Part shown: piece after piece, positions 38,518 through 38,791 of the stretch
Numbering within the stretch: position 1 is the stretch's first letter
How the letters are laid out: the number at the start of each line of letters is the position of its first letter
NCBI GenBank assembly: GCA_945947905.1
Contig: CAMEZO010000005.1
Span: 1-45,248 of the forward strand
Reading direction: 5' to 3'
Source: an uncultured bacterium
GTDB lineage: Bacteria > Verrucomicrobiota > Verrucomicrobiia > Verrucomicrobiales > Akkermansiaceae
Length of the DNA stretch: 45,248 nucleotides
Position numbers and translations under genes: made by a program
Notes under the pieces: model-generated
What the model was told of the DNA's origin: nothing
Seen by the model: only the letters and a program-made list of their open reading frames with translations
Databases searched by the model: none

Positions 38518-38791
38518 GGGACGGAAGGGGGAGGCGGGAGGTGGGTCAGAGTTTTCTCAGCGCTGAGGTGGTAGGTAGCTGATGGTTTTGGGAACGCAGA
38601 ATTTCGGGAAGGTTACGGAAGCTGATTCGTGTGCATAGCTCCGTTCAGACTGCATGTCGCCGTTGCAGTGGAATCATTGACGTTTTCTTTGATGAAAATC
38701 GCCGGCTGCCTACGATGGATCCGCCTCGAAATCTTGCCGGGGATTAGCATGATATTCACTTTCCTCACCTTCCCGAAATTCTGCGTTCACC
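38518..38791. repeat. Intergenic inverted-repeat element, copy 1
   Basis: 22 bp perfect inverted repeat gaacgcagaatttcgggaaggt (38592-38613) / accttcccgaaattctgcgttc (38767-38788); both halves align with 44651-45003. Confidence 0.8.

What the first reader, a model, noticed from the sequence alone, without database searches (positions are those of the whole stretch)
38518..38791. Second, diverged copy of the same element, with arms that changed together (covariation-like)
Arms gaacgcagaatttcgggaaggt (38592-38613) and accttcccgaaattctgcgttc (38767-38788) are perfectly complementary. The left half aligns with the 44651 half-unit (CGCaGAATttcGGG...GTGCatAGCT...CAGACTgCAtgtCGCCGTtGcAGTgGAA vs CGCgGAATgaaGGG...GTGCcgAGCT...CAGACTtCAcacCGCCGTgGtAGTaGAA). 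The reverse complement of the right half aligns with the right half of copy 2 (AaCGCaGAATttcgGGAA...ATATCATGCtA..C..GGCAAGAtTTCgA vs AcCGCgGAATaaaaGGAA...ATATCATGCgA..C..GGCAAGAcTTCaA). The copies differ in their arm sequences, yet complementarity is kept within each copy. That is the pattern expected when structure is selected or repaired.
Basis: partly seen in the sequence, partly recalled or inferred. Interest (0 to 1): 0.82.

Follow-up and report, generated by a model that had tools for sequence, protein, structure and literature searches.

The report
Nested palindromes tied to GxxExxY nuclease
The finding is one of about 40-60 scattered palindromic DNA elements in an Akkermansia genome that look like gene-less offshoots of a tiny mobile cassette carrying a little-studied nuclease (GxxExxY), and across many bacteria each such nuclease gene sits between its own private pair of matching repeats, a pairing I found in no paper I could search.

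Summary
At 38592-38788 two arms (22/22 nt complementary) bound a 197-bp element related to the one at 44652-45032. Both belong to a family with about 180 detected ~85-nt units in 58 clusters in this Akkermansia genome, arranged as concentric inverted repeats. The family is rare and diverged in the closest relative.

The 'covarying RNA' reading fails inside the genome: the two loci belong to two subfamilies, pair-specific arm matching does not exceed permutation (1269/10000), Rfam has no match, and gene 3' ends are not preferred.

The same arms (GAACGCAGAATTTCGGGAA) flank an intact GxxExxY gene (PF13366, PD-(D/E)XK nuclease) elsewhere in the genome. In Verrucomicrobiota, 26 of 32 GxxExxY loci lie between inverted repeats of about three iterons with 9-10 nt period (controls 1/320, 0/64). 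Iterons differ between cassettes even within one genome, yet the two arms of each cassette agree (own 17/20, other cassettes 2/84). Arm type tracks protein type (Mantel p about 6e-4). Genomes with GxxExxY hold almost all solo copies of the commonest iteron (360 hits against 6).

Best reading: MITE-like, self-nesting derivatives of GxxExxY cassettes, a RAYT/REP-like system with a different nuclease. Mobility and binding are inferred.

The parts
38592..38669 (+). Left arm of element A: unit of type I (starts GAACGCAGAATTTCGGGAAGGTTACGGAA, three ~9-nt iterons, then an imperfect hairpin region)
   Evidence: Unit profile match, model 1-77, 46 bits; sequence
38670..38704 (.). Centre (loop) of element A between the two arms
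   Evidence: Gap between the two unit matches
38705..38788 (-). Right arm of element A: inverted unit with type-I end (CTGCGTTC at the outside)
   Evidence: Unit profile match, model 1-84, 41 bits
38592..38613 (+). Perfectly complementary arm end, pairs with 38767-38788; the first 19 nt are identical to the arm beside the GxxExxY gene at G000:C64:9247
38767..38788 (-). Complementary arm end
44652..44735 (+). Element B, outer left unit
   Evidence: Unit match 57 bits
44736..44747 (+). Linker GAGAGGATTAAT between outer and inner left units, recurrent in other copies
44748..44831 (+). Element B, inner left unit (type M, GACCGCGGAATAAAGGG)
   Evidence: Unit match 72 bits
44832..44855 (.). Centre of element B
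44856..44939 (-). Element B, inner right unit (type M end)
   Evidence: Unit match 62 bits
44954..45032 (-). Element B, outer right unit with TCCACGGAT-type iterons (TCCACGGATCACACAGATACCACGGA read inwards)
   Evidence: Unit match 34 bits; alignment

Best explanation
The element is a non-autonomous (MITE-like) palindromic element of a family whose gene-carrying version is a cassette of about 450-700 bp: one small PD-(D/E)XK nuclease gene (GxxExxY, PF13366/TIGR04256) between inverted repeats made of about three tandem iterons with a 9-10 nt period. Most likely mechanism (inferred): the GxxExxY protein recognises the iterons of its own arms, cuts there or at the extruded cruciform, and the break is repaired by copying in another copy, so that gene-less palindromes spread, with a preference for existing copies. 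That would give the concentric layers O-M-I / I-M-O seen here and insertions without target duplication. Shown: family, layering, arm identity with a GxxExxY cassette in the same genome, general association of GxxExxY with private matching arms, enrichment of solo copies in GxxExxY genomes. Inferred: binding, cutting, mobility, self-targeting.
For: Own genome: about 178 unit matches in 58 clusters. PF13366 gene at C64:9425-9772 lies between type-I arms GAACGCAGAATTTCGGGAAATTCAGGAAA / GAACGCAGAATTTTCGGAATCTTAGGAAA, and a second PF13366 gene at C2:25620-25964 lies inside nested elements. Catalytic D79, E89, K91 and the GxxExxY residues are invariant in 20 aligned relatives. AF2 model pLDDT 83.5; best PDB folds are the Cas4 protein SSO0001, RecE and lambda exonuclease. 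Phylum: arms found at 26/32 GxxExxY loci with full flanks against 1/320 random positions and 0/64 displaced positions. Left and right flank agree in 25/32 own pairs against 21/992 cross pairs; own right flank uniquely best in 22/32. Within single genomes: own 17/20, other cassettes of the same genome 2/84, Mann-Whitney p 1.4e-10. Protein similarity tracks arm similarity, Spearman 0.395, 2 of 5000 permutations. Iteron ACCRCRGAGNNCRCRGAG occurs in 42/72 GxxExxY-positive and 5/75 negative genomes, p 6.5e-12, 360 against 6 hits, reversed-pattern control 6 hits in all. Outside the phylum: Bacteroides and Bernardetia loci show the same arms. Dispersal: copies up to 97% identical at different contigs; closest relative G206 has only diverged copies, best 78%.
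Against: No clean empty site was found and no target duplication is seen, so transposition is not demonstrated. GxxExxY cassettes within a genome are not recent duplicates of each other (at most 78% nt identity), so the gene-carrying form itself shows no recent copying. Six of 32 loci miss the arm threshold, although four of those show iterons on both sides by eye. Persicobacter, Gemmatirosa, Sphingomonas and Prevotella loci show none, one-sided or directly oriented iterons. Only 2 GxxExxY genes serve about 50 elements in this genome.
Confidence: 0.68

Rival explanations
1. The elements are MITEs mobilised by another transposase in trans (for example a DDE transposase such as the ISXO2/IS1595-like one found near the C64 cassette), and GxxExxY is only a passenger gene carried between the arms.
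For: An IS1595-type transposase lies 0.7 kb from the C64 cassette; the gene-less copies outnumber the genes.
Against: No transposase other than GxxExxY is found between the arms in about 50 cassettes sampled in many genera. Arm sequence tracks the GxxExxY protein. No Y1/RAYT transposase in the genome. No target duplication typical of DDE elements.
Confidence: 0.15
2. GxxExxY plus arms is a toxin-antitoxin-like or defence cassette: the arm transcript folds into a hairpin RNA that the nuclease binds or processes, each cassette having private specificity to avoid cross-talk; solo palindromes are decayed cassettes or decoys.
For: Within one genome each cassette has private arms, as expected for orthogonal TA pairs. 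Another PD-(D/E)XK family first called recombination-promoting (Rpn) was later reported as anti-phage TA (abstracts of PMC5350276, and PMC10327210).
Against: Does not by itself explain more than 50 gene-less nested copies in one genome or 103 solo motif hits in another. PADLOC finds no confident match. Arms flank the gene on both sides rather than forming one RNA gene.
Confidence: 0.15
3. A structured regulatory RNA or terminator-like element at gene ends.
For: Strong fold of A, z -6.2; internal hairpins recur in units.
Against: No covariation beyond subfamily level, no Rfam match, no 3'-end bias, nested layers and arm loss by unit are not RNA-like.
Confidence: 0.05

Closest known systems
RAYT/REP/BIME systems (REP-associated tyrosine transposases; PMC2817692)
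   Same: Per the abstract: a gene always flanked by two inverted palindromic repeats, coevolution of protein and repeats, abundance of cognate solo repeats in genomes holding the gene, composite arrays of repeats.
   Different: RAYTs are HUH/Y1 tyrosine transposases; none is in this genome. Here the protein is a PD-(D/E)XK nuclease, and the repeat ends are ~30-nt arms of about three 9-10 nt iterons.
MITEs such as enterobacterial RU-1, RU-2 and RU-3 (PMC2759123)
   Same: 100-200 bp intergenic inverted-repeat elements in tens of copies without a gene.
   Different: No target duplication seen; concentric self-nesting with distinct layer types; candidate partner gene is GxxExxY.
Rpn / YhgA-like (Transposase_31, PF04754) nucleases (PMC5350276)
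   Same: Small PD-(D/E)XK nuclease, horizontally spread, reported to promote RecA-independent recombination; no sequence specificity found in vitro.
   Different: Different Pfam family. I did not test Rpn genes for flanking arms.
Cas4 / lambda exonuclease / RecE fold
   Same: Nearest solved folds of the GxxExxY model.
   Different: TM-scores only 0.35-0.48; no homology by sequence.

Membership tests
MITE | Short gene-less element with terminal inverted repeats in many dispersed copies | tested here: met
   58 clusters, arms inverted, 190-480 bp, no conserved ORF
MITE | Ends shared with an autonomous element | tested here: met
   Type-I arms flank a GxxExxY gene at C64:9247-9943
MITE | Target-site duplication | tested here: not met
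   None visible at cassettes or at A and B; some non-DDE elements make none, so this argues against a DDE-type MITE
REP / RAYT | Y1 (RAYT) transposase in the genome | tested here: not met
   PF01797 absent
REP / RAYT | Gene flanked by inverted cognate repeats that coevolve with it | tested here: met
   By analogy for GxxExxY
GxxExxY (PF13366 / TIGR04256) | Profile match above curated cut-off for the partner gene | tested here: met
   134.6 bits against 22; 138 bits against 35
Structured RNA element | Covarying base pairs above background | tested here: not met
   Within-genome permutation and alifold counts; R-scape itself not available
Mobile element | Precise empty site in a relative | tested here: inconclusive
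   G206 comparison gives synteny breaks at most elements; C63 is occupied in both

The most novel reading that the evidence does not exclude
GxxExxY cassettes are an undescribed class of selfish element, parallel to RAYT/REP: each small PD-(D/E)XK nuclease recognises its own private tri-iteron inverted arms, and by cutting and recombination it seeds gene-less, self-nesting palindromes through genomes of several phyla.
Probability: 0.5. Interest if true: 0.85.

Novelty: new variant of a known kind. Interest (0 to 1): 0.72.

Why it matters
GxxExxY proteins are a widespread family without assigned function: in this phylum 72 of 147 genomes carry 1-12 copies. Linking each gene to a private pair of iteron arms gives the family a testable role and explains a common class of ACCACAGAGGACACAGAG-like intergenic palindromes. 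If the protein reads its own iterons, the natural variety of cassettes within one genome is a ready-made set of orthogonal nuclease-site pairs.

Tried and rejected
RNA reading: Rfam, alifold and pair-specific permutation, all negative. RAYT/REP membership: PF01797 absent. Viral contigs with the GxxExxY protein: no match. Empty-site search by flanks in the closest relative G206: flanks mostly lie on different contigs or one flank is missing, so no clean empty site. Empty-site search with the G059 cassette across the genus: flanks not conserved. Orthologous interval of element A in 52 RlmI loci: the TPR-like neighbour gene is not conserved and only the first 64 nt of the interval match G206. Literature: GxxExxY is named in 2 unrelated papers and PF13366 in 1; iteron strings appear only in unrelated primers; PDDEXK3 in none.

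Full report
What is there. The window is contig C5 of a 2.19-Mb draft genome (171 contigs) of an uncultured Akkermansia species; the best named relatives of the neighbouring methyltransferase are all Akkermansia. The arms at 38592-38613 and 38767-38788 are perfectly complementary, and the element is related to the one at 44652-45032. A profile of the shared unit finds about 178 unit matches in 58 clusters. They occur as n units forward followed by n units reverse, with 11-14 nt linkers inside an arm and a ~24-nt centre.

Unit types. Units begin with about three short iterons: type O TCCACGGATnACACGGATnCCACGGA, type M GACCGCGGAATAAAAGGAATTTTCGGA, type I GAACGCAGAATTTCAGGAAGTTTCGGA. Layers are ordered O outside, M inside, I innermost. 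The linkers recur: GAGAGGATTGAT between O and M, TGAAGTTTTCA between M and I. Element A is an I/I element; B is O+M on both sides. About half of the clusters lie at contig ends (27 of 58), as expected of repeats that break assembly.

Covariation. Within this genome the evidence is against that: permuting partners among 39 innermost elements gives 18.92 +/- 0.29 matches in 24, against 19.28 observed. Few stem pairs change on both sides. Where a type-I unit is the inner left unit, the right arm matches the outer type-M unit at 22-24 of 24 and the inner one at 14-16 of 24. The matching partners are the ends of the larger element. No RNA family matches, and gene context is that of ordinary intergenic positions.

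The partner gene. A GxxExxY gene (PF13366, 134.6 bits; TIGR04256) lies between type-I arms at C64:9247-9943, and a second at C2:25620-25964 lies within nested elements. The protein keeps the D...ExK residues and the GxxExxY motif. Its model (pLDDT 83.5) resembles Cas4, RecE and lambda exonuclease at low TM-score. A weak profile hit to T7 endonuclease I (E 0.35) is noted but not significant.

Generality. In 147 Verrucomicrobiota genomes 72 carry PF13366 genes. Of 32 loci with full flanks (one per genome in the phylum draw, plus the Akkermansia loci), 26 have inverted repeats on the two sides of the gene, against 1 of 320 random positions and 0 of 64 displaced positions. The arms are about 30 nt with a dominant 9-nt period, and the span between them is 440-590 bp in most cases. 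Different loci have different iterons (CACAGAG, CACGAAA, CACGGAG, GCCAAG, CAGGAT and others), yet own arms agree: 25/32 own against 21/992 cross. The test is sharper inside single genomes: own 17/20, other cassettes of the same genome 2/84, and those two are the related pair L317/L318. Protein similarity tracks arm similarity. Genomes with the gene hold nearly all solo iteron hits; some solo hits form ~85-bp hairpins without a gene (L276). Bacteroides and Bernardetia loci show the same anatomy, and Treponema and Fusobacteria weaker forms.

How it may work. Shown: cassette anatomy, private arms, gene-less derivatives. Inferred: the protein reads its iterons and cuts, and repair copies palindromes into existing copies, giving layers. 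I saw no target duplication and no clean empty site. Gene-carrying cassettes in one genome are not recent duplicates, so the active spread seen is that of the gene-less form. A TA-like or defence role with private RNA or DNA specificity is the main functional rival, because orthogonal arms within one genome also fit it.

Relation to known systems. The logic matches RAYT/REP, where the abstract reports genes flanked by inverted REPs, coevolution and cognate repeat abundance (PMC2817692), but the enzyme class is different and RAYT is absent. The gene-less forms fit MITE anatomy apart from target duplications. Rpn nucleases (PMC5350276) are a functional precedent for a small PD-(D/E)XK protein promoting recombination. 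I found no description of the GxxExxY-arm association in the searchable open literature; subscription papers and family comments were not searched.

Limits. The loci tested were top-scoring matches, one per genome in the phylum survey, and the extra 20 came from four genomes. Arm calls use a simple ungapped score. The cross-phylum sample is 8 loci, with 2 clear, 2 weak and 4 negative or partial. Genomes are mostly drafts.

Noticed in passing
L253:760-2845 (G206 contig C33, close relative): At the site of the G000 C63 element the relative has the same element plus a HipB/HipA toxin-antitoxin operon between two copies of a ~107-bp stretch (unit plus flank), suggesting gain of the operon or its loss by recombination between the copies.
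   Followed up: partly
G000 contigs C39, C55, C84, C87 against G206 (L245-L252): The left and right flanks of several elements map to different contigs of the closest relative, with synteny ending at the element edge, so elements sit at rearrangement breakpoints. No baseline for random positions was run.
   Followed up: partly
G184 (L309-L314), G099 (L303-L308), G106 (L315-L318): One genome can hold up to six tested GxxExxY cassettes with mutually different iterons, each with matching own arms.
   Followed up: yes
L272 (Prevotella nigrescens plasmid) 1350-1960: Iterons ACAAATC flank the GxxExxY gene on both sides but in direct, not inverted, orientation.
   Followed up: no
L271 (Sphingomonas parapaucimobilis) 1437-1902: A GxxExxY gene sits between fabD and fabG with iterons on one side only.
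   Followed up: no
window 33767-37144: Two adjacent long minus-strand genes share 73-83% DNA identity in several blocks, a tandem duplication.
   Followed up: no
window 21000-21480: Repetitive GTCGGAGGAGTC-like stretch inside a minus-strand reading frame, reading as a serine/aspartate-rich repeat.
   Followed up: no
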